Assembly (NCBI RefSeq): GCF_000829055.1
Contig: NZ_AP012544.1
Span: 2,294,001 to 2,358,000, forward strand
DNA from: Lacticaseibacillus casei DSM 20011 = JCM 1134 = ATCC 393
Lineage (GTDB): Bacteria; Bacillota; Bacilli; Lactobacillales; Lactobacillaceae
DNA length: 64,000 bases
Direction of reading: 5' to 3'
The position numbers and the translations under genes are program-made. The notes below the pieces were generated by a model. That model made no database searches, had not been told where the DNA came from, and was given only the letters and a program-made list of their open reading frames with translations. Shown one piece after another: positions 46,584 through 64,000 of the stretch (position 1 is the stretch's first letter; every line of letters begins with the position of its first letter).

Positions 46584-47120
46584 TTATTTGCTTGGAATCG
46601 TTGTAACGGCCTGGCGATTCTGGGAAAAGTTTTGAATGGAGACCGGCAATTGGCCGTTAAAGTACTGCTTGCCGATGCTGGCAGCTTGACTGAAGAAGTT
46701 CTTGACGTCCGACTGAAAAGCATTGGAATCATTTCCTTGCAGGCTCTTCAAGGCATCGGTGGCGGTTTGGCTGTATGTAATCAGCGCTTTGGTTAAGTCA
46801 CCATTGGTATTTTTTGTGCCGATTCCGGATGCTGGCTGATTGTTCTGCAATTCCAAGGTAATTTTATCTAAATCGTCAACGCCTTTTTTAGCTGAAGCCA
46901 TAATGTCTTTTTGGTCGTCTTTCACCGTGATCTTGGTTAAGGTTTGGATCACAGTATCCGAGATCTTGGTGTAGCGTTTCTGAAGCGCCTTTTGGTCAAA
47001 CTTATTGGTCGTCACCATCGTCGAAGATTTTTTTGCCGACGAATCTGACGATTTTGACTGACAGCCAGCAATGCCGACAATCGTCACCATTAAGACCAAT
47101 AAGCTCATTAATTTTCGCAC
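46584..47120 (-). CDS. Unrecognised small lipoprotein
   Basis: About 178 residues from GTG 47120, with GGAGG eight bases upstream. N-terminal signal ending in GIAGC, a lipobox; the rest is hydrophilic, rich in Ser, Lys, Gln and Asp, and probably helical. It resembles no enzyme that I know. It ends a run of minus-strand genes of the adhesin/glycosylation locus and may be a chaperone or spacer protein there; this is an inference. Confidence 0.8.
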   Translation of the reverse strand: MRKLMSLLVLMVTIVGIAGCQSKSSDSSAKKSSTMVTTNKFDQKALQKRYTKISDTVIQTLTKITVKDDQKDIMASAKKGVDDLDKITLELQNNQPASGIGTKNTNGDLTKALITYSQTATDALKSLQGNDSNAFQSDVKNFFSQAASIGKQYFNGQLPVSIQNFSQNRQAVTTIPSK

Positions 47121-47180
47121 GTTCCATTCCTCCAATGCGTTGTCATTCCTGTATGCCTGATAATTTCACCATGTCAATGG

Positions 47181-48644
47181 CTACAATACCATTTTCCATA
47201 GCTCCCAGCCAGTCAAGCCCTGCAATGGTTTGGCCGCTGCAAGCGCATGATCACTGACTTCCTGCCACCAAGTTTGATCCGTCAATAATTTCAATATATC
47301 AGTCGCCGCGTCAAGCACTTGCTCACTCGGCTTGACAATTCCCAGCTCGCCATTGGTTGCGCCATTCAGCATCTGATCGGCAATTTTTGCAAACGTGATG
47401 ACCGGCGTGCCATAAGTGAGCGAGCTCAACAAATCAGCATCCCCCAAGTTGCCTAGATCTGCCACGATAAATGCCATTACCTGCCCCAAGTCGCCTGACT
47501 CCGCTAATGATTGGGTTTGAATATCCAAAAGTGAAGACAATCCGAGCGGCTCAATTCTTTTTAGCAATTGCTGAGCCAACGCTTGATCTTGATGCTTGAC
47601 GAAAAGATCCAACTTCACTTGATTTTCTTTGACCTTAACCATTGCTAACGTGCTCAATAGCTGTTCAAAAATCGCCAAATTTTGATTGTCCAGCTCCATC
47701 GCCACTCGGCCTGGCAAGCGCTGTGCCCATGGCTTCACCCCAGGAACGGCGGACTGCTGGCTCACTGCTGCCGCAATGGGCACAACTTTTGCATATTGGG
47801 TTAAAGACGACGTAAAGGTCGCCTGAGGATCAGCAATTAATTGTCCAAAAGTAGCACGACCGCCGTTTGACTGCTCGGCTTGCTTGACGACGCTAACATC
47901 ATCTTCGGTTCTGACAACTGGCACAGAATCAGTCATCATTTCTTGTCCCAACATGGGCAAAACGCGGCTTGGTTGATCCACCAATAGTTTACCCGGATGT
48001 TGCTTCATCACATGTGCTAAGCAGTATTTGGCAAACGACGTCCAATCCGTAAACTCAGCTGATTGTCCAGCCAAGTCCAACACGGTCAGATGTTGCAAAA
48101 TGCCGTTACCATCATATTGACAAAACAAAAGTGGCATTCCATTCGCATAAAAATACACGGCTAGCCGCAATTGCCCATCCGCTTGAAAATACACGGTTTT
48201 CACCTTATTGCCTTGACGATCATAAACCTCGGCATAACTCTTACGGTTGTTATCGCCAAAGAACGTAATGGTATGTATCCGCTGTGCGGTCAACTCAGCT
48301 TCATCGTCAAAAGCTGTAACAGCATACATCAAATGGTCACCATTCAAAAATTGTAAATGGTGATCAACCGTCTTGGTTTGATAATCGTTCAGCTTCATAA
48401 TGTCGCCAATCGTGTAAAGTGGTTTTCCCTCACTGGTGTCAGTGCCACGTAAAACATCGATAAGTGACATGACCTGATCCGACCGTAAATGAGCCTTTTG
48501 AACCTGCTCATCCAGATCTTCTTGCGCGCTCAAGACAATGATACTTGCCGGCACTTGGTGATCCGCAAATAATTGAAGTCGTTGTACCTGCTCTTTACCA
48601 CTAGGTGTATCGCCTTCAAATCGATATGTTAAAAAATAAACCAT
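47181..48644 (-). CDS. GtfA-like glycosyltransferase-related protein (accessory-Sec type)
   Basis: About 487 residues. An N-terminal Rossmann-like start (VYFLTYRFEGDTPSG) is followed by a beta-meander (YAEVYDRQGNKVKTVYF, QADGQLRLAVYFYANG) as in the middle domain of GtfA-type glycosyltransferases. The C-terminal third (ADLGNLGDADLLSSLTYGTPVITF, TNGELGIVKPSEQV, TWWQEVSDHALAAAK) has the layout of a GT-B nucleotide-sugar domain, with GTPVITF at the usual place, but I cannot find the E-x7-E pair with certainty. ATG 48644 follows GGAGGAG. GtfA/GtfB enzymes start O-glycosylation of Ser-rich adhesins; two related short proteins lie beside it. Activity is unproven. Confidence 0.6.
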   Translation of the reverse strand: MVYFLTYRFEGDTPSGKEQVQRLQLFADHQVPASIIVLSAQEDLDEQVQKAHLRSDQVMSLIDVLRGTDTSEGKPLYTIGDIMKLNDYQTKTVDHHLQFLNGDHLMYAVTAFDDEAELTAQRIHTITFFGDNNRKSYAEVYDRQGNKVKTVYFQADGQLRLAVYFYANGMPLLFCQYDGNGILQHLTVLDLAGQSAEFTDWTSFAKYCLAHVMKQHPGKLLVDQPSRVLPMLGQEMMTDSVPVVRTEDDVSVVKQAEQSNGGRATFGQLIADPQATFTSSLTQYAKVVPIAAAVSQQSAVPGVKPWAQRLPGRVAMELDNQNLAIFEQLLSTLAMVKVKENQVKLDLFVKHQDQALAQQLLKRIEPLGLSSLLDIQTQSLAESGDLGQVMAFIVADLGNLGDADLLSSLTYGTPVITFAKIADQMLNGATNGELGIVKPSEQVLDAATDILKLLTDQTWWQEVSDHALAAAKPLQGLTGWELWKMVL

Positions 48645-48682
48645 GATTCTCCTCCGCATTCATTCTACCGATACCAACCCGC

Positions 48683-49696
48683 TCAATGAGGCATATATTC
48701 ATGCCAACTCAAGATCGGCAACACCTCGCCTGCCAACCTCTTAACATCCGGTTGATTGACAAATTGCTGACTGATTAAATACGCCTGTGCCTTCACATTC
48801 GCCAGCAACGCAGTGTCAGGTTTGTCATAAACAATTGGCACCAAATGCGGATGCATGGCCGGCTCGTCAATAAGTTGCGCAAACAGGTCACTATCAGCAT
48901 CGATATAAAGTTTGCGCTTAGTATGTTGAAAGTTTTGTAACAACCACCAAACCATTAGCTCATTTTCATCATCTAAGGCCTTAATCGGTTCCCCCCTCTC
49001 CGACTCTACCCAAAACTGATTAAAAGTCGGCAATGCCACAATGACTGGACGCCCGCTCATGTCAACCAGCATACGGTGCACCGAAGTCGTCACAAAAAAC
49101 GGATCTGTTGCATTTTGCCGATGGATATTCGGCATTTCAGCGAAACGTTCAGTCATCATCAAGCGCCCTTGATGATCGTAACTATCCTCGCGACGCAACT
49201 TACCATCGCGAAAATAACTCACAACCTGCACCCGCTCCTGGTCATCACGTTCGACTTTAATCGCAGTTTGTCCATCTTGATCGACATAACGCGTCACGTG
49301 ACTCCCCAAAGTTTGCTTAGGTGTCAGTTCCTTGGTGAACTCACTACCAAATGTGGCCGTTGCGCGACTAACACTGCCGCGTTGGTGTAAGGATGTATAA
49401 AAATTATGGTACGACGTTGGTGGTAAAAATAGCTTTTCTTTGTCACGATAACGCATGAACCGGGAAACTTTGCCAAAACCGAACCCGCCATCAATGATCG
49501 CTGGGGCCAACCCTTTATTTTTAAAATAATTCATCACCGTTGCAATCTTTGCCCACAGCTGCTGTGACATATCTTCTGGCAAAGTCTCTAAGTAAAAAAA
49601 GTCTTGCTTATCATCGCTTATTACGAAATCATTCGTTTTTTCAGTCGCATTCGTTGTTTCCTGTTTCTTTTTTGATCTATTCGACAACCAGCCCAT
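48683..49696 (-). CDS. Beta-meander protein related to GtfA N-terminal modules
   Basis: 337 residues. N-terminus MGWLSNRSKKK is short, hydrophobic then basic. The middle part (SHVTRYVDQDGQTAIKVERDD, YFRDGKLRREDSYDHQGRLMMTERF) and the segment MVWWLLQNF, KLYIDADSDLFAQL, LVPIVYD match the same order of blocks in its neighbours at 47181 and 50406. It lacks the C-terminal nucleotide-sugar domain, so it is unlikely to be an active transferase; a GtfB-like chaperone or substrate-recognition role is possible. The promoter is an extended -10 at 49895-49903. Confidence 0.65.
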   Translation of the reverse strand: MGWLSNRSKKKQETTNATEKTNDFVISDDKQDFFYLETLPEDMSQQLWAKIATVMNYFKNKGLAPAIIDGGFGFGKVSRFMRYRDKEKLFLPPTSYHNFYTSLHQRGSVSRATATFGSEFTKELTPKQTLGSHVTRYVDQDGQTAIKVERDDQERVQVVSYFRDGKLRREDSYDHQGRLMMTERFAEMPNIHRQNATDPFFVTTSVHRMLVDMSGRPVIVALPTFNQFWVESERGEPIKALDDENELMVWWLLQNFQHTKRKLYIDADSDLFAQLIDEPAMHPHLVPIVYDKPDTALLANVKAQAYLISQQFVNQPDVKRLAGEVLPILSWHEYMPH

Positions 49697-49894
49697 GACT
49701 ACACCCTACCTTCATTTAATGAGTGTTCTTTGGTGAAACAAACCAGACGCGCATGGCCAAAACAATGTCACTGTCACAAACAAAAACGCCAAAAGTCACT
49801 TATGTACTCATTATTTGGCAACCTTTTAATGCTTATGAACAAAGAAATATTTTGCATCTTCCATAGTAAATGACAAAAGTCAACGACACTAATA

Positions 49895-49903
49895 ATTATA
49901 ACA
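49895..49903 (-). promoter_or_regulatory. Extended -10 promoter
   Basis: On the minus strand TGTTATAAT, an extended -10, about 190 bases before the gene at 48683-49696. The rest of 49697-50405 is AT-rich with no credible gene; a TGTAAAAT near 50052-50059 may serve the opposite gene. Confidence 0.55.
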
Positions 49904-50405
49904 TGGTCGTGATTCAGAACGCACTTCTACACCCACTTTTGGATTGGATATCTCTTGAAACGTCAGTCAAGATCAAAAAGTCGAAAAGAATTTTCAACTT
50001 TAGAGTAATTAATATTCAACAATAAAATTCTTTTTTAAATCGGCTCTTTGCTGTAAAATAGGCACATGGGATTTTGCCTGTTTCTCATTATTTAATTGTA
50101 CTTAAATGAACGGTTTTATTTGGCTGATCGTCATCACGTCGGTTAGTCAGACAATGTTGTTGCTTGATGCTAATGTTTCGCCAGAACCTCTGGAGATTAA
50201 AGACAACAAGTTTAATAATACGTGCATCGGTCATGCGATTATGCCTTATAATACGATTGAGATTAGGTAATGTGTCAACTGGAATCAGCAATCTGGGCGA
50301 AAACGATGCCGGACTGGCACAAAGAACAAGACAATTAGCAGGTGAGAAATAATGCTTCAATTGTTTAGTAGAAATAGAAAACTTAATTTATGGGGTGGTT
50401 TAAAA

Positions 50406-52653
50406 ATGAGTATCTTTGGGAAAAAAGGGCGGATCCAGTTTTTGCGCAATCAGCCAAACAAGCTCCAACAGGAAAGCGAACAAAACTTGAGCGCGGCGAC
50501 AGGAGATAGCTATACTGGTCTGTTTTCGTCTGAATCATCTGTTAAGTCCAAACCAGAAGCTGCCTCCAAACCGCGTGTGCTTCCGGAAACCGGGACGAAA
50601 ACCGCAGTGACAGATCGTCCGGTTGCCAATTTGCGTTCTGCGACTGCGTCTACCACAACGACGGCTACTGCCAAGTCGACATCTTCGTCACTAACGCAAT
50701 CTGCCTCAACATCAACCTCTAACATGCACACAGGCTCGCAATCATCGTCAGCCGCTTCACGCACCAGTGTGGCAACTTCTGCAAAGTCAACGATGTCAGC
50801 TAAGTCACCAGAGGCTAGCAAACCGGCGATGGCAAAACCAACACAGAGCGAGCGCAAATCAGGAGAGGTACCAAGTTCGGCTCCAAAAACCGAAGCAACA
50901 AACATCACCGCCAGTTCGGCTAAAATTGACAATGCCAAGAACACCTTGAAACAAGCGATTTCTACATACAATGAGGCACGGCGAACGCTTCAAGCGAATA
51001 TGTTTGCTAAACGTGCCGATTTGCAGGCAGCCCTAACCCAAAACAAGTTGACGTTGGCCCAAACACAACGCGACATCAAAGTCATGCAAAAACGCATGGC
51101 CCAAAATGATGGTAGTGAGTTAGTTCCTGCGCAAAATACAATTAGCGATTTGCAAAACCAAGCCAATAAAATTGCGAGCCAACTCAAGTCCAAGCAAGGC
51201 ATCCTTGACGATCTCAACCGCCAACGCCGATCTCTAGAAAAGCAAGCGCAAATGACCCTTGAGCAGGGTAAGAAATTCAAGCAGGATGAAGAGGCAATCA
51301 TGGCCGCTTTTTCCGGCATCAAAGATCCGGAAAAAGTTCTCGCCTTTGCCGATGCTCATCGTAAGCAAATCGATGACATTAAGGCCGGTGAAAAAAAAGC
51401 TAACCGCAACGCAGCTCAGCTTGAAGAAGCAGCTTGAAGATATTATCAATGAAATTAACCAAGCTAAAGATGAAATCACCAAAATCAATAGCGAACAAAA
51501 TGCCAATGGCCAAGCCATCACCAATGCGCAACGCAAGCTTGATACATTAAAGGCTAAAGTGGCCAGTGATCAGGCTGACGACAAAGCCCAATTAGACAAG
51601 CTTCAGCATCAACAGGCCGATTTAACAGACGAGTCTAAACGTTTGCATGACCAGTTGCATACGCTCAGTGACGGCATCACCGCATGGCTGAACTTCTCGG
51701 AGCCGGTTCATGCTTTGGGTGAAGCTGATTATGCACCATTAATTCTGGATATTGATTCGTTCTCTGCACATGATTTTGAAGCGCTGGCCCCATTAAGTGA
51801 CATGTTACAATCAATGCCAAAGAAACAGGTCGGTATTTTCACGACCTATTTCAACATCGATTTGGTTCCGACCATCGATGCCTGGTCAACGGCTAACAAC
51901 TTCAATCCAGATGAAATCCAAATCATCAACTGCCTTTATCAATTGCAAAATGCTGGCGAGGGCGCCGAGAATGCCGCAACGTTACCTGCTAATATCAAAA
52001 ATCGCCAATGGAATGAAAACCACACGGCCGAAACCATCACCATGCCGGATGGTCAAACCAACATGCTTGTCACCTATCAACTCGACGCCCAAAAGAAGCC
52101 GACCAAGCTCATTGCAAAGATTGCCTATCGCCAAGGTGACAAACTCACGAAAGAAAGTTTCTTCCGTAAGAATGGTGTGCTATCGGCCAACATATTCTAT
52201 GACGTTGCCAACGGGATCACACGCAAAGAGTTCTACCGTCGTGACGGTTTGCTCGTCGTTTCAGCAACTTATGAAGGTCAGAAGTTAAGCGACATCAGCG
52301 TCTTCAACGAAGCCGGTCTGCAAATCAACTCTTTCGACTCCCTTACGGCTCTCAACGTTTGGTGGCTACAAAAGTCATTCCCACAGGAAGGCGCTATGAT
52401 CGGCAACTTCAAGTCCAAAGCCTACCGTGATTTGACCGCCAAATCCGGCGTCAAGTTAGTGCCATTTGTCGATGAAGCCGTTGTCGACACAGACGACTTT
52501 ACTCGCTGGATGGCCGATCACAAGCAACAGGCCTTTATCACCAACAACGTCACGACACAAAGCGCCTTAGCCAAAAAGGCCAAGCTGCCACTTTATGTTA
52601 ATGTGCTCAATCAGGCACCATTACCGGTTCAACTTTCGATGCCCGCTGATTGA
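50406..52653 (+). pseudogene. Coiled-coil/beta-meander protein, frameshifted
   Basis: Two frames encode one protein of about 740 residues. The first frame (from ATG 50406, MSIFGKKGR, to a stop at 51437) gives a basic start, a Ser/Thr/Ala-rich segment and a coiled coil (about residues 180-340). The second frame continues the coiled coil (KKQLEDIINEINQAKDEI), then a Rossmann-like part (APLILDIDSF) and the beta-meander (FFRKNGVLSANIFYD, EFYRRDGLLVVS, LNVWWLQKSF, GVKLVPFVDE) shared with the proteins at 47181 and 48683. The break is at 51417-51440, where CAGCTTGAAGA is repeated with a 13-base period. Loss of 13 bases, or of one T, would restore one frame. Phase variation or decay are both possible. 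Confidence 0.8.
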
Positions 52654-52703
52654 TCATTAAACAAAATTTCCATAGAAAAAGGACTAGGCTGCAAGCCGGT
52701 CGT

Positions 52704-52760
52704 AATAAGAACCCAGCGCGGCGAGCTCATCCAAGTGAGCGCCAGCGCTGGGTTCTTATT
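52704..52760. terminator. Bidirectional terminator between convergent genes
   Basis: Perfect 16-bp arms, AATAAGAACCCAGCGC and GCGCTGGGTTCTTATT, with an inner GGCG/CGCC plus CTCA/TGAG pairing. Confidence 0.88.
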
Positions 52761-52793
52761 GTTGTCTCTTCTGGTACTGACCGAAAAGATCGT

Positions 52794-54221
52794 TTATTCA
52801 GCTTGAATCATTTTACTGTCCTCAATCTGATGTTGTAACTGCAAATTTTCAAAACGCAGATTGTTGACCTTATCTTGCAGTGTCTTTGTTTGCTCTTGAC
52901 TTTCTGCATACTTGTCGGTTAATCCCTTGATCGACTTTTGTGCCTCTTGGAGTTTGGCCTGCAATTCAGTCACAAACGCTTGTTGGCTTTCGCTTTGAAC
53001 TTTTTGGCGATCAAGCACCTCTTCATGGGTTTGTCTGACCTGCTCGCGAATCTTGCCAAGCGCTTCATTCGTATCATTTAAATCCTTTTTGGTGTTTTCC
53101 AGCTCGTTCTTAGTCACAATCAGGTTGATTAAAATCTCACTGAGTTTATTGATCGTCTTGCTATGTGTGCGCTCGAATTCAGCGGAAGCATCCAAGTGTT
53201 GCGTAAGTTTTGTGGATAGAGCCGCCACTTGTTCTTGGTTCATTTGGCTTTGTTGCTGAAGTGCTTTGATGGCGACCATCACAGCGGTCTCTGTCTCTGA
53301 GCTGCGACCTGTAGCACTATGCACTTCAGTTGAGTCGGAAGTTTGGTCTGATACCTTTGGCTTTTCAGTAGTGACATGCTCAACACTCGATTGATTCTCC
53401 GAAACTTGTGTCATCTGTTGGTTAGGTACAGATGCGCCAGCGTCACCCTCAGTTGGAGCCTGTGAATGGGTTGAGTTTGCTGTAGAACTCAATTCTTCAT
53501 TCTTTTCTGATGAGACTTCGATAACTTTTTCAACTGCGGCTTGTGAAGCTGACTTGGCTACATTCATTTCCGGCGTCGAGCCATTCTCCCCATCCTGAAG
53601 TTGTTGTGTTGTTTTTGCCGGATCCGATGAGGCGGTTGCAGCTATCTCGGTACGAGTATCACCTGCTGATGCAATGGCCGCAGCATCGGAAGCTTGCGCA
53701 TCAGCTTCAGAGAGACTTTTATGATTGAAATGATCAATGTCAATCACATTGTCCGGTTTAAAGGCCATGCCTGCTGCCGGAGTTGACGCTTCGCCTTCTT
53801 TTTTCTCTTTTTCAGTAGCAGTTACTTTCAAATCCGCAGCATCATTAGCATCAGCCGCTGAAGCCGAAGATGCCGATTGACTGCTCGCAGATTGTTCAGA
53901 ATCAACATAAAGTGTTAACTGATCGTTAGCAAAGCTCAGCTGCGCACCTTTGGAAATGCTCATTGTCCAGTTTTTGCTTTTCACTACTTCAGACTTTTCA
54001 GGAACGTCATCCGCCTGAGCTTGTTCCGCGTTACCGGATGGCTCTGATTCACTGGCTGTCGCTGTCCCTGCGATCCCTGTCTGTAAACCGTTGGCGTCCG
54101 TTCGGGGCAACAACTCCGCAAGGCCTGCGAGACCGTCATCCCCAGCCCTACGCAATTGCTTCTCCAACGCACCGAGAAGATCATCCTGATCTGACGTTTT
54201 TTTCTTAGCAAATAGGCCCAT
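52794..54221 (-). CDS. Coiled-coil protein of the adhesin locus
   Basis: About 475 residues. It starts MGLFAKKKTSDQDD, similar to the starts of the proteins at 48683 and 50406. Then come a low-complexity acidic/Ser/Ala-rich region (about 45-300), one short ordered stretch (NWTMSISKGAQLSFANDQLTLYVD), and a long C-terminal coiled coil (about 310-475; heptads such as ILINLIVTKNELENTKKDL, then LQDKVNNLRFENLQLQHQIED). No signal peptide, so it is cytoplasmic, perhaps at the membrane through its basic N-terminus. ATG 54221 follows GAAAGGA by eight bases. Role unknown; a scaffold for adhesin modification or export is a guess. Confidence 0.75.
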   Translation of the reverse strand: MGLFAKKKTSDQDDLLGALEKQLRRAGDDGLAGLAELLPRTDANGLQTGIAGTATASESEPSGNAEQAQADDVPEKSEVVKSKNWTMSISKGAQLSFANDQLTLYVDSEQSASSQSASSASAADANDAADLKVTATEKEKKEGEASTPAAGMAFKPDNVIDIDHFNHKSLSEADAQASDAAAIASAGDTRTEIAATASSDPAKTTQQLQDGENGSTPEMNVAKSASQAAVEKVIEVSSEKNEELSSTANSTHSQAPTEGDAGASVPNQQMTQVSENQSSVEHVTTEKPKVSDQTSDSTEVHSATGRSSETETAVMVAIKALQQQSQMNQEQVAALSTKLTQHLDASAEFERTHSKTINKLSEILINLIVTKNELENTKKDLNDTNEALGKIREQVRQTHEEVLDRQKVQSESQQAFVTELQAKLQEAQKSIKGLTDKYAESQEQTKTLQDKVNNLRFENLQLQHQIEDSKMIQAE

Positions 54222-54331
54222 CTTCATCTTCCTTTCTAAAATCGGTTCACACGTTTCATTGTCAGTAATTTTTAAAGCAATGACGTGTGAGATTATCTCG
54301 CAACGTCAATTTTTTGCAGCAAATAGCCAAA

Positions 54332-57022
54332 TTACGCGACCGCCACGGTTTTAATCGCAGGGTCAGCATTCGGCGTGGTCGCTTTTTGGTCAGCTTGCAA
54401 CTGCTTCAATTGTGCTTGAAGGCTTGCAAATTTCGGCGAGTCAACATAAACAAAAGTTGTGTCTGGAAGCGGCACCGTCTGGGGATTAGTTTTCACATTG
54501 GCCATTGCCAAAGCTTTATCATACAGACTTTTATCACTGTAGGTTGGGGCTTCAAAAGCGTAATAATAGCTGTACTGATTTTTTTCGCTCGGCGATTGGG
54601 TAAATGCTAACCCCATCGTCGGACCGCCATACAGCAAATTTGCCCGATGTCCATAATGCCCATCGCCAATTGGCTCCGGATTATCCGATTCATCATATCA
54701 ATCCATGACCAGATAATAGGCAATTTCCTGATTAAAGTGCATGCCCTCGATAATCCCCTTGCTGGCACCAATATCTTCAGTCGATCCGTGAGAACCATCG
54801 TGACTAAAGTTCGTCATAATCTCTTGAACCCGCTTAGTGGCAAAAGCCTCTTCACTGGCTGAATAACTCAGCGGTTTCTGGCCATTTGACGTGCGCAACT
54901 GATTCACATATTGTAGAAATTCACCAGCGATTTCTTTGGCGTCCGGCTTAAAGTCCGGATTAACGGCAAGATAAACTGCTTCTTTGCTCGGATAGTTAGT
55001 GGTGGAAGTGAATCTGGAGGCAGGGTTGCTGTCAGAGTGCGGTAAGGATTGGATAGCATTCTTTATACTAGCAAGTGTGGCACTGTCAGAAGGGATGGTG
55101 TACGATTCTTTACCTCCCACTCTTACTTTTCCCATTTTGGTAACGATAGTGCCGTTGGGATCGGTAAATTCGAAACGTTGAAAATAAATTCCTGGTAATG
55201 TTACCGGAACCGTACCATCAATTCTGATGTCTGACAAGCTAACCGCTTTCCCGGTGGAATTGACAGCAGATATTAACATTTTAGTTGGATTCCAACGCGT
55301 GCCCAAGGGAATGCTCATATCGAAAAGATTAATGTATGGTGTTAGCGTGGTGCTCTTCGATGTGTCTGTACTGTCACTATCGGTGGCGTCAGGGGTTTTA
55401 GGGGCAGGCGTCTTTGAGTCACCATTTTGATGGTCCTTGCCATTATTGTTATTTGTCGTTGCACCGGTACTGGATGAACCCGGAAACAATCCTTGGATCG
55501 TTGTTTTCACTTGGTTAATCACCCATTGAATCGGTGCCATGATGCCGCCAAGAACATCTTTAAACATCGTCATTGCCGATCCGGCAAACGAAGCAATCCC
55601 ATTGACCACTGACACACTGATATTCAAAACGCCTTGCAGTGCGTTAATGATTGTTGGTGCAACTGTGGCCGTGATGTTTGAAACGCCGGTCAAAACACCT
55701 GAAAGTCCAACAACCCCCGCCACCGCCTTGACGATCGAAGCTGGTCCTAGATTCGTCGCAGTATCTAAAAGTGGGTTAATGGAGTTTGCCAGATTCTGAC
55801 CAATAAATGGAATGGTTTTTAATACCGGTGAGATCACACCTTGAATCGCTTTACCAATCGTGTTAATGCCAAGGTTTAGCGCGCCGGAAACCAAACCGGT
55901 TGGGTCAATGCCAAGTGAATTAGCAACAGTAACTGCATCTTGAGCAGCTTTGATTGCACCACTGGCAAGTGGCAAAATCACATTAACAATTGGCAGCGAT
56001 CCTGCTACGGACCGCAACCCGGAAACGATTGCGGAAAGCCCATCTAGAGCACCGTTAACGCCATTTTTGATGGCCCACTTAACCGCATCTCCAAGTGTCA
56101 AATTGTAGACGTCACTAATTTGCTTAACCAGTTGACTCAGGTCCGGAGCCGTAAGCCACGGTTGCGCCGCTGACGTACTCGTTGCGCCCAGTATGATTGC
56201 TGACGCGTGATCAGCTGCTGCTGCTGATGTGATTTCTTCCAGCTTTGCCTCATTTTGACTCTGTTTGACATTGGATACGTACTGATCAATGTGAAGACTG
56301 GCATTGATGGCTTGACGAACCCTAGCTTCTTGATTTTTTTCTACTTCATCGCTGGTTGCGTTAGAAGTGATTGATATAGGATCTTGGCTGCCACTAGAAC
56401 TAGTCTTGATCTCACTTTCAGCGATACTTTGACGTTCAGGACTCATCGAAGGTCCCTCTTCACCATATTTATCGCTTTTGGTTAATCCAAGTGTGGTAGC
56501 AGGTTGCGAAACGTTTTGTGCGTTGCGACTTGGGCTGTTCTCGGAAGCTGTGGATGCCGAGTGTACAACCGGCTGTTCTGTCGTTGTTGCGGCCGTGTCA
56601 TTTTTTTGGTGCGAGACAGCTTCATTTGCCAACGATTCCTCGTTGGCTGACGAGATTTTTTGCGCCTCCTGCTGCGGTGATATTGTTGGTTTTTCTTGAG
56701 CATCAACAGTTGCCCGATTATTTTGGTCCGGAGTCGCTTGCAAATCAGCCTTAATACCCTCTGGTGCTTCCGAATTCTGTGAATTAGCAGCTTGAGTTGT
56801 CTCCTTCTGAACCTGATCCGTCACTTTAATAGCAGTTTCTATATCCGATTGTGTATCTGCATTGACGTGATTTGTCATGACTGCATCCGCCAAAAACGCC
56901 GCGCTTGCAAAAGTTACAATCACACTTGAAGCATACAACCACTTTTTCCCAGATTTCCATCTTCTAAACCGGGTGATCTTAGTTTGTTGATTAAGCCACC
57001 TTTGCCCACTATGGTTCCCCAT
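54332..57022 (-). pseudogene. KxYKxGKxW-type surface protein with CAP domain, in-frame stop
   Basis: The frame is continuous from ATG 57022 (GGAG upstream) to 54332, about 896 codons, except for one TGA at 54698-54700 (after AYYLVMD). It has a KxYKxGKxW-type signal (TRFRRWKSGKKWLYASSVIV), a Ser/Thr/Gln-rich region, a long hydrophobic/Ala-Val-rich middle (about residues 290-520), an Ig-like domain (TPYINLFDMSIPLG to KMGKVRVGG), and a C-terminal CAP/SCP domain (FLQYVNQLRTSNGQKPLSY, FSHDGSHGSTEDIGASKG). After the TGA the same frame continues YDESDNPEPIGDGHYGHRANLLYGG, the CAP core with its GHYxH motif. A TGG-to-TGA change would explain it. The truncated product would lack the catalytic-like His. 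Confidence 0.88.
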
Positions 57023-57212
57023 TATCTAATCTCCTTCTCCATAATTGCCAGCGTCAACGTTTAAGCAGTTCGCTCATAACCGCAAAAACAGTCTCCTTGT
57101 TCGTTTCATGATCTTTTGCACTGAAACTTAAAAAAGAAGTCAACCCAAAAGCTCGGATTAACTTCTTTCCCGCTTTCAGTGAACAAACGTGACTGTTCAC
57201 ATAAAAACTTTC

Positions 57213-57458
57213 TTACTCAACTTCGTGGACTGTGACAATTGTCTTTTCTTCAACTCTCTTACCAGATACCTCGTCATAAAATGCAACTTTAACAGGATAG
57301 AAACCTGGATTAGTAGGCCAAACTTGACCTTCGTATTCAAGCTTAGCTGATGGCACGTTAGCACCATCTGAATACGTAGCGTTTACAACGACATCGCTTG
57401 GATCAAAACGCAATCCAACTGGCAGCGAGATTGGTTTTAGTTTCAATTCTTCTTGCAT
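57213..57458 (-). CDS. Ig-like domain fragment, C-terminal part of the next protein or a coupled small gene
   Basis: About 81 residues starting MQEELKLKPISLPVG, with AGGTGA five bases before ATG 57458. The sequence (VGLRFDPSDVVVNATYSDGANV to EEKTIVTVHEVE) is an Ig-like domain of the same type as the end of the protein upstream (RGARFNPFDAIVSAQDGNG to GYATVTVA). The upstream frame ends at a TAG (57468-57470) in the same frame, so this may be the final Ig domain cut off by a nonsense codon, or a separate small translated gene. No signal peptide. Confidence 0.6.
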   Translation of the reverse strand: MQEELKLKPISLPVGLRFDPSDVVVNATYSDGANVPSAKLEYEGQVWPTNPGFYPVKVAFYDEVSGKRVEEKTIVTVHEVE

Positions 57459-57467
57459 AAATATCAC

Positions 57468-59878
57468 CTAGGCGACCGTGACTGTCGCGTAACCGGTAAC
57501 AACCTCGTTATCGTTCATTTCATTAACGAAGGAGTGCTTAACATAAAACTTACCTGGCAAATTAGTATAGATATTTCCTTCAACCTTGATGTTAGATTTT
57601 GAAATATCCTTACCATTACCATCCTGAGCGCTGACAATCGCATCAAAAGGATTAAAGCGTGCACCACGGAACAACTTAATGTCCTTCGTTTTCAACTTGC
57701 CAGCCTTAGAAGCAAGACTTTGGACCGTGTTGATCAAATCAGAGATTCCTGGCAATGAGCCGACATCTTTGATCAACAACTGAAGGTTTGGCAAATGAAG
57801 ATTCAAACCAAGTAGGCTTGCGACCGCACCGATTCCACACCAATGGCACCGCCTATAACTGATCCGATTGGTGTCCCAACCAGCGTTGCAATCGTATCCG
57901 TCAAGGCAGTGATCCAACCAACTACAAATAACATGATTGGATCAACAATAATCCCAAGGCCGATAACACCGATAACACCACCGATGAAACCTGCAATCCC
58001 ATCAACAAGCGTGCCAATAGGGAATGAGATAATCCAGTCGCCTAAAGTTTCACCGACAAGTGCACCGATGGCAGATCCTAAGGCTGTCCCGCTGACAATA
58101 GTATCAAGATTGCCATCTTTATCAGCTAATCCTGGCCCTGAGGTGGCCCCATAATAAGCACCAAGTGGAGCACCAATCAACCCGGTTAGCCAGCCCGTGA
58201 TGCCAGGAGCCCAACCAAGGTCACCGGCCGTACTTGGATTGGCAACCATCCCAACGATCGGAATTAATCCAAGGATTGAGTTCAGAATGGTTCGGGGAAT
58301 CCCCGCAACCAGATAAGCACCAAAGCCCCCTACAGCCGTTGCGATTGTGCCATAGAACGTACTACCAATGGCACCGCCAACCAACGATTCAACAAACTTA
58401 CCGATTTCACCAAGTCCCGTCAGATCCGGAACAAGTCGCACTGGGTTGATATTCGTCGCCAGCCATGAAACGACATTCCAGATCGTTCCGGTAATGCCAC
58501 TCACAATCCCGCCCAAGTCAAACCCAGCGAGTGAAGTTGACATGCTTGCCTTCGAGATGGACGACTTCAGCTCATTGGCAACGGCATCCTGTGCATCATT
58601 AATTTGCTTGGTCATCGCCTTATAAGAATCCTTGGCTTCGTATTTCTGCAAATCATCGGCAAAAGCCTTACCGATATCTGTTGCAAAGAACGATGCAGCT
58701 AAGGATTGAATGGCTGTCGCATCGGAAGCCTTTTCTGCTGCCGTCATGGCTTTGCTGAACGCGGCAAACTCAGGAATATCTGCATACGACTTCAAGGTTT
58801 CCAATAATGCCTTACCATCAGCAGTCTGCAGATATGCCGTCACAGCCGCAGAACTCTGAGCAGCACCCGAATCGGCTGCCAGCTTAGCTTCATCAAGAAG
58901 TTTCTTGCCGGCATCGGTTTTCATGAACTCAGCGACAGCAGCAGAATTAGCGGCTGCTTTTTTAGTAGCGTTAGCTGATGCCGCTGAAATACTCGATGAC
59001 AGCGAGTTCAGCATTGCTTTTGCTTCGGGCTTACTTGCCAATGATTCTAACGATGCTTTGACGGCTGCTAACGAATTTAACGCCTTGCCTTGTGACGTTG
59101 TGTTAAATTCCGCAATCAATGCCCGTTGCTTGGCAGGATCAGCAGCTGCATCTGATAGCTGTTTCTTAAAAGCCAAAACAGCAGGATCATTCGCCAACGA
59201 GCCAGCTTCACTCAAAAGACTTGCTGCACTCTGGAGCTTATCGCCAAGCTGGGCAAAAGCAGCACTGCCAGCCGGCGTTTTCGCGTAAGATGCCGCGGAT
59301 GATAAGAGATCAGCAAATTGTTGCGATGTTGGTGCACTGGAACTTGCTGTTGTGGCATCAATTGATGCTGCAAAGTCCATTCCTGCCTTTGTAGCGGCAA
59401 CCGCAGCAGCGGAGGATGCCGCATTGGTCGTAGTTGCTGCGCCACTGTTTGCAGGTGCAGGTGTTGCAGCCGTTGCAACAGTAGCTTGTGAAGCTGCTGC
59501 ACTCGGCGCCTGTGTCGAAGTTGCGACTGGCGCTGCTGCAGAACTTTCCACTGCTTTGACTGTCTCTGTTGCCACTGATGGCGCAGAAGGCTGCTCAACG
59601 TTTTTAGTTGTCTCCGCTGAAGCCTCACTTTGGACAGCCGCCGATGAAGCAGCTTTAGCACTTGCTGCAGCCTGGTCAACTTGCTGTGCCACTTGAATCG
59701 TGTCGGTTGTGACGTCGGCCTTAACTGTTTTCCCTGATTCTAAGGCACCCGCACCGATAATTGAAACCACCAGCGAAGAAGCGAATAACCACTTCTTGCC
59801 TTTCTTCCAAGAACGAAAATGCGTATTTTTAATCTGCGCTTTTTCGTTCCCCCTTTGTCTTTGTAAATTTTTCTTCAT
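57468..59878 (-). pseudogene. KxYKxGKxW-type surface protein, frameshifted
   Basis: Two frames encode one protein. The first frame (from ATG 59878, MKKNLQRQRG) has a KxYKxGKxW-type signal (HFRSWKKGKKWLFASSLVV), an Ala/Ser/Thr-rich region, helical repeats (about residues 190-450), and a long Gly/Ile/Val-rich hydrophobic region (GGIVSGITGTIWNVV to VGTPIGSVIGGAIGV). At about 57840-57850 the frame is lost: the other frame continues GIGAVASLLGLNLHLPNLQ and an Ig-like domain ending at 57468. One missing G in a GGTGTGGAA context would explain it. As read, the first product ends soon after the hydrophobic region (at 57803). The Gly-rich hydrophobic part resembles bacteriocin- or glycine-zipper-like membrane regions. 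Confidence 0.8.
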
Positions 59879-59939
59879 ATGATTCGGCCCCACTTTTTCA
59901 TTGTTTGCCCTTAGTTCATTCAAGCAAATTCAGACCACA

Positions 59940-62900
59940 TTACGCTTCATGACGACGGTGACGTGTTGCACCGTAAAGAGATAATGCAGCCATCAAGCTA
60001 ACGCCGGCTAACGCAATAGCGCCTGTAGCTTCGTCTTCGCCTGTTTGTGGTAGTGAATGGTCGCCACTAGTAGAACCATTGCCAAACTGATTTCCATTGT
60101 TTGCGGTTGATCCATTCGTAACACCGGTTGCTGACAATTTACCCACACTGTTGGCACCGGTTGTTGAACCACTACCATTCGTGCCATTGCCATTCAGACC
60201 AGTTCCAGTACCATTGGTTCCACTACCACCATTGTTGGTCGTATTAGCACCCGTACCATTAGTACCGGTTCCTTGACCGTTGCTACCATTACTGTTCGAA
60301 CCGTTGCCACTATTGGTACCATTGTGATTAGCATCAGCGCCAGTACCCGTACCATTAGCGCCGGTTCCTTGGCCGTTGTTCCCATTACCGTTCGAACCAT
60401 TTTCGTTATTAGTGCCATTGCTACCATTGTGATTAGCATCAGTGCCAGTACCCGTACCGTTATTACCGGTTCCTTGTCCGTTGTCACTACTACCGTTCGA
60501 ACCGTTGCCATTATTAGCAGCATTGCTATTAGTACCGGAACCATTTGTACCATTCCCGTTACCACTGGCATTGTTACCGCTATTGGTACCATTACCATTG
60601 CCATTAGTATCAGGAAGTGCGCCATTGTTAGCTTGAGTAGCAAGATCCTTAGCAAGATCGCGATCAGCTTCAGCACGACTTGCCGCATTTGCAGCATTGT
60701 TAGCATCAGCAATCGCAGCATCGGCGTATCGCTTAGCAGCTGCTGTGTACTTAGCAGCTTCATCAGCTTTGCCAGCTTCTTTAAAGACGCCAGCTAAGGA
60801 CTGAGCAATTTTGGCTGAATTTGCATTGGTCGCGGCATCTGTTGCATAAGATGCAGCATTTGAACTAGCCGTCGATGCATCAGTATTCAAGTATGCGATT
60901 TGCTTATTATTCGGATCATTCTTTGCAATAGCGGCAGTGGATGCTGCTGCATCAGAGGCCAAGGCCGCGGACTGTTTAGCAGTTTCTGCAGCCTTGGCTG
61001 CTGCGCCAGCATAATCTTGCGCCGCAGCAGCATTGCTAGCAGCTTTAGAGGCGGCGTCATTCGCCGCGTCGGTTGCTGTACTTGTTGCCTGAGCTGCGTC
61101 ACTTGCTGCTTGAGAGGCTGCAGATGCGTCACCCTTAGATGCTGCATCACTCGCTTTAGCGGCGTCACTATTGATGGCCGCATCAGAAGGGTTGTTCTTC
61201 GCATCATTTGCAGCATTCTTCGCGGCATCGCTTGCTTTCGCGGCATCGTTGGCGGCAGCTTTGGCAGCATTGTTAGCTGCCTCCTGAGCAGCTGTCCGTG
61301 CCGCATCACTTGCCGTCTTGGCATCACTAGCTGCTACATTCGCTGCATCACTAGCCTTGCTTGCATCGCCTGCTTTAGCTGCTTGTTCAGCAGTTTTGGC
61401 AGCATCAGCCGCATGACTGGCAGCATCGGAAGCAGTCTTGTTTGCGTCCGCAATCGTCTTGTCATTTGGATATTCATTTGCATATGAACCAGTTTGCTTA
61501 GCAGAATCAGCTGCATCTTTAGCAGACTTATTTGCAGCATCGGCATAACCATTTGCGGCTGTGCTTGTGCCAGTATCGCCGGCTGACGAAGCGGCCTTCG
61601 CGGCATCCTTTGCCGCATTGGCCGCTTTCACAGCATCGGCTTCAGCACGACTTGCTGCGTTTGAGGCAGCTGATACATCGCCAGTCTTGGCAGCTGTATC
61701 AGCATCTTGTGCCGCTTTGGCAGCATCAGCGGCGGCAGCGGACGCCTGCTTGAGCGCATCAGCAATAACTGCATTATCACGGTACTTATTAGCGTAATCA
61801 CTTGTCTGATTTGCTGAATCAGATGCCTGATTTGCAAAACTGTGGGCGTTAGCTGCGTAATCCTTAGCCGCGTTCAATGCAGCTTGAGAGGCCTTGGCTG
61901 CTGCCTTGGCCGCATCATTTGCTGCATTAGAAGCCCTTACAGCATCATCTGCTGCACGACTTGCCGCGTTCGACGCATCAGCAACGTTGCCACTCTTAGC
62001 AGCCACGTCAGCATCTTGAGCAGCTTTGGCGGCTGCCTTGGCTGCATCATTTGCCGCATTAGAAGCCTTCAAAGCATCATCCGCGGCACGACTTGCTGCA
62101 TCGGATGCTTCCGCCACATTGCCACTCTTGGCAGCTGTGTCAGCGGCTTGAGCAGCCTTGGCCGCATCAGCTGCAGCGTCAGATGCTTTCTTGGCAGCAT
62201 TTGAAACAGCAGAATCGTCAGGATACTTGCTTGCATAATCATTAGCCTGAGTTGCTGAGTCGGAAGCATCATTCGCTGAACTGTGTGCATTATCTGCGTA
62301 ACCTTTTGCAGCATTCAATGCTGCTTCAGAGGCTTTTGCGCCAGCCTTGGCCGCGTCGTTTGCGGCATTGGATGCTTTCAACGCATCGTCCGCTGCACGA
62401 CTTGCTGCATCAGATGCGTCTGAAACATTACCACTCTTAGCTGCCTTGTCAGCTGCTTGAGCAGCTTTGGCGGCATCGGTCGCAGCATCAGAAGCTTTCT
62501 TGTAAGCAGTTGAAACAGCCGCATCATCAGGATACTTGTTGGCGTAATCGCTTGCCTGGCTTGCAGCGGCTGCGGCATCGTTTGCTGAACTATGCGCATC
62601 ATCAGCATATTCTGTAGCTGCCTGAGAAGCTGCTTCAGAAGCTCGTTGTGCTGCTTTTGCTGCGTCGTTTGCAGCATTTGCTGCTTTCGCGGCAGCATTT
62701 GCTGCGCGTTTGGCCGCTTCAGAAGCACTAGCTGCATCATGGTTCTTGGCAGCACTGTCAGCATCTTTGGCTGCTTTTGCAGCATCGGCTGCGGCATCAG
62801 CCGCTTTCTTGGCAGCATTTGAAACAGCAGCATTGTCAGGATAATTATTTGCAAAGTCGCTTGCCTGACTCGCTGAATCAGAGGCTGCGTCAGCCGATTT

Positions 62901-64000
62901 GTGAGCATCGGATGCGGCATTGTTTGCCGCACGCGATGCAGCGTCACTCGCAGCCTTCACTGAGCATTAGCTGCGTTTGAAGCGTCCGTGGCCGCTTTAG
63001 CAGCTGTCGAACTATCGCCATTACGAGCGGCATCACTCGCTTTGGCAGCAGCTGAACTTGCTGTGCTTGCTGCAGCGCTTGCGTTATTTGCATCGTTTTG
63101 GATATTGGCATCTGACGGATTATCAAAAGCATTTGAAGCGGCACTGGCAGCAGCATCACTCGCTTTGGCTGCGTCATCGGCTGCAGCTTTAGCGGCATTG
63201 CTTGCTGCACGTGATGCAGCATCACTAGCCGCGTCAGTCGCTGCCTTGGCAGCATTCGAAGCATCCGTGGCCGCTTTTGAAGCCGTAGAACTATCGCCTT
63301 TGCTTGCAGCGTCACTCGCCTTGGCAGCTGCTGTACTTGCCTGGCTTGCCGCGGCATTTGCCTTGTCCGCGTCACTTTGGATATTGGCATCAGACGGGTT
63401 GTTCGCAGCGTCACTCGCAGCCTTCTTGGCCGCATCGCTAGCTTTGGCTGCATCATCTGCCGCTGCTTTTGCTGCATTGTTCGCTGCGCGTGATGCAGCA
63501 TCACTTGCGGCTTCATTCGCTGTCTTTGCAGCGTTTAAAGCGTCATTGGCTGCTTTGCCAGCCGTGGAACTGTCACCTTTGCTTGCAGCGTCACTTGCCT
63601 TGGCTGCTGCTGTACTTGCCTGGCTTGCTGCTGCATTTGCTTTGTCCGCGTCACTTTGGATATTGGCATCAGACGGGTTGTTCGCAGCGTCACTCGCAGC
63701 TTTCTTAGCTGCATCGCTAGCTTTGGCTGCATCATCTGCCGCTGCTTTTGCTGCATTGTTTGCCGCGCGTGATGCAGCATCGCTAGCTGCGTCGTTTGCT
63801 GTCTTGGCAGCGTTCGAAGCGTCCGTAGCCGCTTTTGAAGCCGTAGAACTATCGCCCTTGCTTTGTCTGCATCACTTTGGATATTGGCATCAGACTTGTT
63901 GCCTGCAGCGTCACTCGCAGCCTTCTTAGCCGCGTCGCTAGCTTTGGCAGCATCATCTGCCGCTGCTTTCGCCGCATTGGCTGCTGCGCGTGATGCAGCG
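59940..64000 (-). pseudogene. Giant Ala/Ser/Asp-repeat LPXTG protein, 3' part, frame broken twice
   Basis: The coding sense is on the minus strand and the N-terminus is beyond the window. From 62960 to 59940 it is open: about five repeats of roughly 100 residues (blocks such as DAAKAAQAADKAAKSGN, DASDAASRAADDALKASN), a Gly/Asn/Thr-rich stretch (GTNGSGTNSN-like, about 175 residues), and LPQTG with a hydrophobic helix and RHRRHEA tail. Upstream the repeats continue but the frame breaks at about 62958 (one base missing) and at about 63858, where a 58-bp internal deletion of a repeat shifts the frame. It is a sortase-anchored fibrous adhesin of the Ser-rich repeat type. The breaks may be real decay or assembly errors in repeats. 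Confidence 0.8.

What the first reader, a model, noticed from the sequence alone, without database searches (positions are those of the whole stretch)
46584..59878. Three paralogous GtfA-like beta-meander proteins and basic-start coiled-coil proteins beside KxYKxGKxW adhesins
The proteins at 47181-48644, 48683-49696 and the C-terminal half of 50406-52653 share the same order of blocks: Rossmann-like start, YxxDGxLxxxxxYxxxGxL meander, W(W)LL(Q) segment, then a (K/V)LYxD or LVPxVD strand. Only the first seems to keep a nucleotide-sugar domain. Those at 48683, 50406 and 52794 also share a short hydrophobic-plus-Lys start (MGWLSNRSKKK, MSIFGKKGR, MGLFAKKK). Known accessory-Sec loci have one GtfA and one GtfB. 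A set of domain-shortened and coiled-coil-fused relatives would be a distinct glycosylation or presentation apparatus for these surface proteins.
Basis: partly seen in the sequence, partly recalled or inferred. Interest (0 to 1): 0.75.

Follow-up and report, generated by a model that had tools for sequence, protein, structure and literature searches.

The report
Half-glycosyltransferase helpers beside giant adhesins
Next to genes for giant sticky surface proteins, this Lacticaseibacillus carries proteins that look like sugar-adding enzymes cut in half, keeping the part that grips the target but not the part that holds the sugar, and they probably escort the sticky proteins to the cell membrane.

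Summary
The proteins at 48683-49696 (g2) and in the C-terminal half of 50406-52653 (g3) are predicted to fold like the N-terminal, acceptor-binding half of GT-B glycosyltransferases (SdgB, TarM, GtfA, Asp1/Gap1), with the extended beta-sheet domain. The donor half is missing. The protein at 47181 (g1) keeps a donor domain that has lost its acidic motif. g3 is frameshifted here and intact in relatives. The donor-less 'half' proteins form one clade in at least seven Lactobacillaceae genera. Of the members scanned, only one distant member barely passes a curated cut-off (Pfam Asp1). Many start with a short aromatic-plus-basic motif like FtsY's. In Lacticaseibacillus, 8 of 12 genomes with a half gene have one within about 6 kb of a KxYKxGKxW adhesin gene; in 5 of those 8 no full transferase lies in the stretch fetched. 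The window locus is the known spc adhesin cluster with gtfA/gtfB-like genes, and this genome shows no SecA2, second SecY or Asp2. Best reading: membrane-tethered, non-catalytic adhesin escorts that work without SecA2. Structure and association are well supported; the function is inferred and untested.

The parts
47181..48659 (-). g1: full-length GT-B pseudo-glycosyltransferase, relative of GtfA/GtfB/SdgA with a degenerate donor motif
   Evidence: NCBIfam SdgA 3.9e-10, below cut-off; BLAST to own gtfA 4e-10 and gtfB 8e-10; Glu of the LIEA-type motif and the YGP motif are lost; dN/dS 0.20 against L. zeae
48683..49696 (-). g2: donor-less half GT-B (N-terminal Rossmann part plus extended beta-sheet domain) behind a basic-aromatic start MGWLSNRSKKK
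50406..52653 (+). g3: basic-aromatic start MSIFGKKGR, Ser/Thr-rich linker, coiled coil, donor-less half GT-B; frameshifted in this genome (two frames)
52794..54227 (-). cc: protein with weak coiled-coil-type matches and an FtsY-like start MGLFAKKK; no match to the half profile
   Evidence: weak matches only; not among the half-profile hits; in 3 of 30 Lacticaseibacillus genomes, the same 3 that hold spcC
54332..57022 (-). spcA-like secreted protein (KxYKxGKxW, Big_3, CAP/PR-1); premature in-frame stop near 54698
   Evidence: Pfam CAP above and Big_3 just below cut-off, NCBIfam KxYKxGKxW; collinear with the L. zeae homologue in one frame
57213..57467 (-). small ORF in the place of spcD; Big_3-like by eye only
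   Evidence: ORF list; spcD described as a small Big-3 protein in PMC3584209; no family search was made
57468..59923 (-). spcC-like KxYKxGKxW protein; frameshifted in this genome
   Evidence: NCBIfam KxYKxGKxW 1.3e-05; matches the intact 818-aa L. zeae protein in two frames
59940..64000 (-). spcB-like giant Ala/Ser-rich LPxTG adhesin; start (KxYKxGKxW) beyond the window; frame broken
   Evidence: LPXTG anchor; L003:2536-6642; KxYKxGKxW at G000:C1:2361453; pieces in several frames against the 2574-aa L. zeae protein

Best explanation
g2 and g3 belong to a Lactobacillaceae family of non-catalytic half glycosyltransferases. They keep the acceptor-binding half of a GT-B enzyme (first Rossmann part plus the extended beta-sheet domain, which in GtfA/GtfB contacts the Ser-rich adhesin) and have lost the nucleotide-sugar half. 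A short N-terminal aromatic-plus-basic peptide, like the start of FtsY, would hold them at the inner face of the membrane, and a disordered or coiled-coil stalk gives many of them reach. They would bind the long Ser/Ala-rich part of a KxYKxGKxW adhesin in the cytosol, after or without glycosylation by GtfA/GtfB, keep it unfolded and hand it to the ordinary SecA/SecYEG translocase. This resembles what GtfB and the Asp1-3 complex do in accessory Sec systems, here without SecA2. Shown: predicted fold, missing donor half, shared start motif, one clade, association with adhesin genes, no SecA2/second SecY/Asp2 in this genome. Inferred: membrane binding, adhesin binding, handover to Sec.
For: Fold; in 5 of 6 TarM rows, g2 residues 29-337 map to TarM residues 1-309 of about 490-500. 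One clade: 35 half rows (several near-copies) against 18 transferase rows, 100/99. Selection: dN/dS g2 0.10, g3 C-part 0.08. Start motif; own FtsY starts MGLFDAIKKAF. Adhesin link: 8 of 12 genomes within about 6.2 kb, 0.49 expected, P 2.5e-9 under random placement, not corrected for shared ancestry. In G395, G354, G398 and G290 the half gene is beside the adhesin gene and in G198 two ORFs away; in these five no full transferase (ORFs of 110 aa or more) lies in the fetched 14-19 kb. G038: KxYKxGKxW-MucBP-LPxTG gene directly followed by a half gene. No accessory Sec. Literature, passages only: a domain DUF1975 of GtfA/GtfB contacts the acceptor and GtfB acts as chaperone (PMC6973325); Asp1-3 act with SecA2 at the membrane (PMC5578698). 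That DUF1975 is the extended beta-sheet domain is recalled.
Against: No binding, localisation or knockout data. In 4 of the 12 genomes no KxYKxGKxW gene was seen near the half gene: G132 (half gene close to a contig end) and G397, G315, G325 (beside PgfM-like genes; tested for G315 only, the others by eye). Half proteins also sit beside other genes: Companilactobacillus next to AI-2E and DUF218 genes or a PgfS-like transferase, and G123/G033 with no evident surface gene and no start motif. The fitted pattern misses 6 of 13 hold-out half entries. VIA ranges of several SdgB and GtfA rows run to chain residue 410-416, and of Gap1/Asp1 rows for g3 to 448-452, though no more than 292 residues are aligned in any of the transferase rows. 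The g3 model is moderate (pLDDT 72). Several genes of the locus are broken in this genome, so the system may not work in this strain. The half gene of G398 is itself in two frames. G049 has a SecA2-like gene elsewhere.
Confidence: 0.5

Rival explanations
1. They are specificity subunits, chaperones or inhibitors of the GtfA/GtfB pair: the half pairs with GtfA through the beta-sheet domain and steers or restrains adhesin glycosylation, without a role in export.
For: gtfA/gtfB-like genes close by in G000, G277 and G049; DUF1975 mediates GtfA-GtfB contact in the review passage (PMC6973325); half genes beside PgfS-like and PgfM-like protein-glycosylation genes (below cut-offs).
Against: Five adhesin-linked half genes have no full transferase in the fetched surroundings, although one could act from elsewhere in the genome; the membrane-type start is not needed for such a role.
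Confidence: 0.25
2. They serve teichoic-acid or surface-polysaccharide assembly (TarM-like scaffolds), and adhesin linkage is secondary.
For: The profile's best PDB sequence hits are TarM (E 4e-5); G315/G325/G397 half genes lie in glycan-type clusters (partly by eye).
Against: 8 of 12 link to KxYKxGKxW genes; SdgB and GtfA match in structure as well as TarM does.
Confidence: 0.12
3. The half proteins meet a separate donor domain in trans and rebuild a working transferase.
For: A paper titled 'Mix and match auto-assembly of glycosyltransferase domains' (PMC10937113; title and start of abstract seen in a search listing only).
Against: I noticed no orphan donor-domain ORF in the ORF lists of the locus or its relatives; no dedicated donor-domain search was made.
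Confidence: 0.04
4. They are decaying transferase fragments without function.
For: g3, spcA, spcB and spcC are broken in this genome and g2 and spcA in L. zeae; the G398 half gene is in two frames.
Against: dN/dS well below 1; one clade over at least seven genera with shared architecture.
Confidence: 0.05

Closest known systems
GtfB/GtfA of accessory Sec loci (SRRP O-GlcNAc transferase and its chaperone)
   Same: Predicted fold of the N-terminal half with the extended beta-sheet domain; genes beside a Ser-rich KxYKxGKxW LPxTG adhesin
   Different: No donor domain; N-terminal tether-like motif; coiled-coil or disordered stalk in many; no SecA2, second SecY or Asp2 in this genome
Asp1/Gap1 (accessory Sec GT-B pseudo-enzyme)
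   Different: Asp1 chains are about 500 residues, with both halves (recalled), and work with Asp2, Asp3 and SecA2; SecA2 and Asp2 are absent here, Asp3 was not searched
SdgB/SdgA and TarM (GT4 family)
   Same: Closest in structure and profile search
   Different: Active enzymes with both halves (recalled)
spcB-spcC-spcD-spcA cluster of L. rhamnosus (PMC3584209)
   Same: Same adhesin cluster; spcA, spcC and spcB counterparts present, with two GtfA-family genes in the cluster; no aSec genes in the cluster
   Different: The passages read do not mention half proteins or the coiled-coil protein; g1 and g3 were not found in the L. rhamnosus-like G049
PgfS/PgfM protein glycosylation genes of streptococci
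   Same: PgfS-like or PgfM-like genes beside some half genes
   Different: Those matches are below the curated cut-offs; not in the window

Membership tests
GtfA/GtfB-type glycosyltransferase | N-terminal Rossmann part plus extended beta-sheet domain | tested here: met
   for models of g2 and g3; (sequence alignment) for g1
GtfA/GtfB-type glycosyltransferase | C-terminal donor Rossmann domain present | tested here: not met
   g2 has 337 residues, 29-337 taken up by the N-half match; TarM rows end at 309 in 5 of 6 (g2) and at 328-359 (g3) of about 490-500. Some SdgB/GtfA rows end at 410-416 and Gap1/Asp1 rows for g3 at 448-452, with no more than 292 residues aligned in all. g1 meets the feature
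GtfA/GtfB-type glycosyltransferase | Conserved acidic LIEA-type donor motif in g1 | tested here: not met
   Ser in place of Glu and no YGP motif; 9 of the 10 full transferases aligned keep Glu, one (gtf519_G049) has Gln; 10 of 10 keep YGP
Asp1 (TIGR03713/PF16993) | Model match above the curated cut-off | tested here: not met
   no Asp1 hit for g1, g2 or g3; a distant half member (L103) passes Pfam Asp1 barely, 27.3 against 26 bits
Accessory Sec locus | secA2, secY2, asp2 in the genome | tested here: not met
   one SecA, under the SecA2 cut-off, one SecY, no Asp2; L. zeae G277 as positive control shows two, two and one. No genome of the seven passes the SecY2 cut-off, so SecY is judged by copy number
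spc adhesin cluster | spcA (Big_3+CAP, KxYKxGKxW), spcB (giant Ala/Ser-rich LPxTG) in one cluster | tested here: met
   PMC3584209 passages
FtsY-type N-terminal membrane-targeting sequence | Short aromatic-basic N-terminus | tested here: met
   (sequence resemblance only; not every member)
FtsY-type N-terminal membrane-targeting sequence | Binds membrane | not testable with these tools
   needs localisation or liposome assay

The most novel reading that the evidence does not exclude
A dedicated, SecA2-independent adhesin escort family: donor-less half glycosyltransferases, tethered at the membrane by an FtsY-like peptide, that pick up KxYKxGKxW adhesins through a re-used acceptor groove and feed them to the general Sec channel, one partner per adhesin, across Lactobacillaceae.
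Probability: 0.35. Interest if true: 0.8.

Novelty: new variant of a known kind. Interest (0 to 1): 0.7.

Why it matters
KxYKxGKxW adhesins are usually explained by the accessory Sec system, yet all 30 Lacticaseibacillus genomes searched have the signal while only 10 of 30 have Asp2 above its cut-off. How the rest mature and export such adhesins is open. A conserved, largely unnamed family beside the adhesin genes gives a concrete candidate in tractable, food-grade probiotic hosts, and a case of a glycosyltransferase cut down to its substrate-gripping half.

Tried and rejected
Rejected: accessory Sec just beyond 64000 (the bases beyond hold the spcB start, an IS30-type transposase, gtfA/gtfB-like genes and an oxidoreductase; IS30-type and oxidoreductase named by eye). 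Rejected: g3 as one intact gene. Uninformative: weak Pfam and NCBIfam coiled-coil hits for cc and the g3 N-part. Plasmid search: no match. Genome-contig scan with g2: only L. zeae (records near the own genome may be left out). The search for homologous proteins with g2 alone: 2 proteins; with the alignment: 39, those with a name 'hypothetical' or 'uncharacterized', nearly all Companilactobacillus. Paper searches listed nothing that I recognised as a description of the half family. Beyond listings I read passages of PMC5566788, PMC3584209, PMC6973325, PMC5578698 and PMC9145642. Against my reading of the locus: PMC9145642 (one passage) says SpcA and SpcB are not encoded in L. casei and L. zeae; here divergent and partly broken homologues are present, and PMC3584209 itself names a L. 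zeae SpcA homologue. The g1 plus Asp1-like grouping in the tree (96/47) is two long branches and is not used. A co-occurrence idea, that adhesin-linked half genes prefer genomes without Asp2 (7 of 8 against 13 of 22 others, counted), was not tested formally and is not claimed. One search gave 64 of 397 genomes at E 0.001; its weakest rows were not checked and may include full transferases, so the strong set (12 of 395 genomes at 93 bits or more) is used instead. Transmembrane check: the highest 19-residue hydropathy mean is 1.76 in the G290 sequence, position not looked at; the next are 1.52 and 1.49.
Full report
The window is G000:C1:2294001-2358000 of a 2.95-Mb, 3-contig genome. Its nearest named relative at the locus is L. 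zeae DSM 20178 (93% for g2). Three neighbouring genes encode GtfA/GtfB relatives: g1 (47181-48659, -), g2 (48683-49696, -) and g3 (50406-52653, +). g3 is broken into two frames here but is one 761-aa frame in L. zeae and 758 aa in G132. A fourth protein, cc (52794-54227, -), has only weak coiled-coil-type matches.

What the neighbours are. The adhesin genes are the spc cluster of L. rhamnosus (PMC3584209, passages read): a giant Ala/Ser-rich LPxTG protein (spcB), a KxYKxGKxW protein in the place of spcC, a small ORF in the place of spcD, and a Big_3 plus CAP protein (spcA). Two full GT4 transferases, closest to SdgA/SdgB/GtfA models though below their cut-offs, lie beyond the window on the spcB side. 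spcC is found in 3 of 30 Lacticaseibacillus genomes (G000, G277, G049), and cc in the same 3 of 30. One passage of PMC9145642 says SpcA and SpcB are not encoded in L. casei and L. zeae; the homologues here are divergent and partly broken.

One family. In a tree of 55 N-terminal halves, 35 donor-less rows (several near-copies) are one side of a branch (100/99) against 18 full transferases (97/91); g1 and an Asp1-like 285-aa protein fall outside the transferase group. Selection between this genome and L. zeae: dN/dS g1 0.20, g2 0.10, g3 C-part 0.08, g3 N-part 0.23, cc 0.30, spcA part 0.36, gtfA 0.05, gtfB 0.08. A profile search of 395 genomes of the order found half proteins at 93 bits or more in 12, all in this bacterial family and in five genera (g1, g4, g9, g20, g38). 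Members of g12 and g33, which are in the alignment and the tree, make at least seven. g4 is Companilactobacillus by the names of its proteins. Of the half members scanned with Pfam or NCBIfam, only L103 passes a cut-off, that of Pfam Asp1 (27.3 against 26 bits).

The start motif. A pattern fitted by eye on the first loci matched 13 of 253 ORFs in 19 loci, all half or cc proteins; it missed the half proteins of L069, L072, L074 and L079. In 20 loci fetched afterwards it matched 7 of 13 half entries and 1 of 165 others (Fisher p 1.3e-8). Two of the 13 entries are pieces of one broken gene, one of them added by hand, and some are near relatives of those used for fitting. The one other protein is FtsY (MGLFDAIKKAF), which I had fetched on purpose; without it the count is 0 of 164. 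That the FtsY start targets the membrane is recalled. Among 26 half sequences or pieces the highest 19-residue Kyte-Doolittle means are 1.76 (G290), 1.52 and 1.49; the ORF called for G290 probably starts too early, as MGFFNRGRK follows at residue 77, and the place of its 1.76 was not looked at.

Adhesin linkage. In the genus, 12 of 30 genomes have a half gene at E 1e-20. In 8 of the 12 a KxYKxGKxW gene lies within about 6.2 kb: G395, G354, G398, G198, G290 and G049 from the coordinates, and G000 and G277 from spcA (those two sites are not in the printed rows, which was cut). Random placement expects 0.49 of 12 (P 2.5e-9); this ignores shared ancestry, and G000, G277 and G049 share one locus. 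In G395, G354, G398 and G290 the two genes are neighbours and in G198 two ORFs lie between; in these five no full transferase was found among ORFs of 110 aa or more in the fetched 14-19 kb. The G398 half gene and adhesin are in pieces. Outside the genus, G038 has a transferase, an ABC transporter, a KxYKxGKxW-MucBP-LPxTG adhesin and a half gene in that order. Against: no such gene was seen near the half genes of G132 (close to a contig end), G397, G315 and G325 (PgfM-like cluster, tested for G315, by eye for the others); Companilactobacillus, G123 and G033 half genes have other neighbours.

No accessory Sec. The genome has one SecA (907.5 bits, under the SecA2 cut-off of 930), one SecY and no Asp2. 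L. zeae, as positive control, has two, two and one, the extra SecA, SecY and Asp2 lying together on another contig. Asp1 and Asp3 were not searched. Next to a galU-like gene this genome has a broken transferase, an IS30-type element (galU-like and IS30-type named by eye) and the tail of an adhesin 93% identical to one beside the L. zeae aSec genes. [quoted passage not shown] casei ATCC 393 and JCM 1134. That this genome is one of those strains is a guess from that match. G049 has a second, SecA2-like gene but no Asp2 and one SecY.

How it most likely works. Passages say that DUF1975 of GtfA/GtfB contacts the adhesin, that GtfB is a chaperone, and that Asp1-3 work with SecA2 at the membrane (Asp2 and Asp3 bind the adhesin directly). 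A protein made of just the adhesin-gripping half, often with a membrane-type start and a long stalk, encoded beside the adhesin and in five genomes with no transferase found around it, is best explained as a tethered escort for general Sec. Predicted fold, missing half, motif, clade, linkage and lack of SecA2/Asp2 are shown. Membrane binding, adhesin binding and handover are inferred (0.5).

Caveats. g3, spcA, spcC and spcB carry frameshifts or stops here, and L. zeae carries others in spcA and g2. This may be assembly error, decay or phase variation. PMC5566788 suggests phase variation for other adhesins of this species (passage).

Noticed in passing
L112:2670-5519 and L116:3-6923 (G000:C1 about 1002670-1012900): Likely remnant of an accessory Sec locus next to a galU-like gene in the window's genome: a transferase broken into two ORFs, an IS30-type transposase (by eye), and the tail of an adhesin 93% identical to one beside the L. 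zeae aSec genes.
   Followed up: partly
L107:6908-9979 (G049): SecA2-like protein of 1023 aa whose SecA match ends near residue 659, in a genome without Asp2 and with a single SecY.
   Followed up: partly
window 51259-51437, near 54698, 57803-57917, 62944-63999: Four genes of the locus (g3, spcA, spcC, spcB) carry frameshifts or a stop in this genome while L. zeae has different lesions (spcA, g2): possible phase variation or assembly error.
   Followed up: partly
L069:12628-17447 and L068:2249-7064: A half protein beside an Asp1-like 285-286-aa protein (Pfam Asp1 31.9 bits, tested for L069) and a PgfM1/PgfM2-like membrane glycosyltransferase (tested for L069).
   Followed up: partly
L103:8148-11068, L104:8295-11200: Companilactobacillus carries a second, about 640-aa half paralogue directly before a GT2-type gene; the L103 one is PgfS-like (339.7 bits, cut-off 500), the L104 one looks alike.
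   Followed up: partly
L109:4273-9930, L077, L083: Companilactobacillus 470-490-aa half proteins in a conserved order with AI-2E transporter and DUF218 genes (tested for L109), a phosphoglycerate-mutase-like gene and, upstream, secreted proteins with similar C-terminal repeats (by eye).
   Followed up: no
window 46584-47135: Lipoprotein-like 183-aa gene downstream of g1, almost unchanged in L. zeae (dN/dS 0.009) and kept beside g3 in G132 (by eye); function unknown.
   Followed up: no
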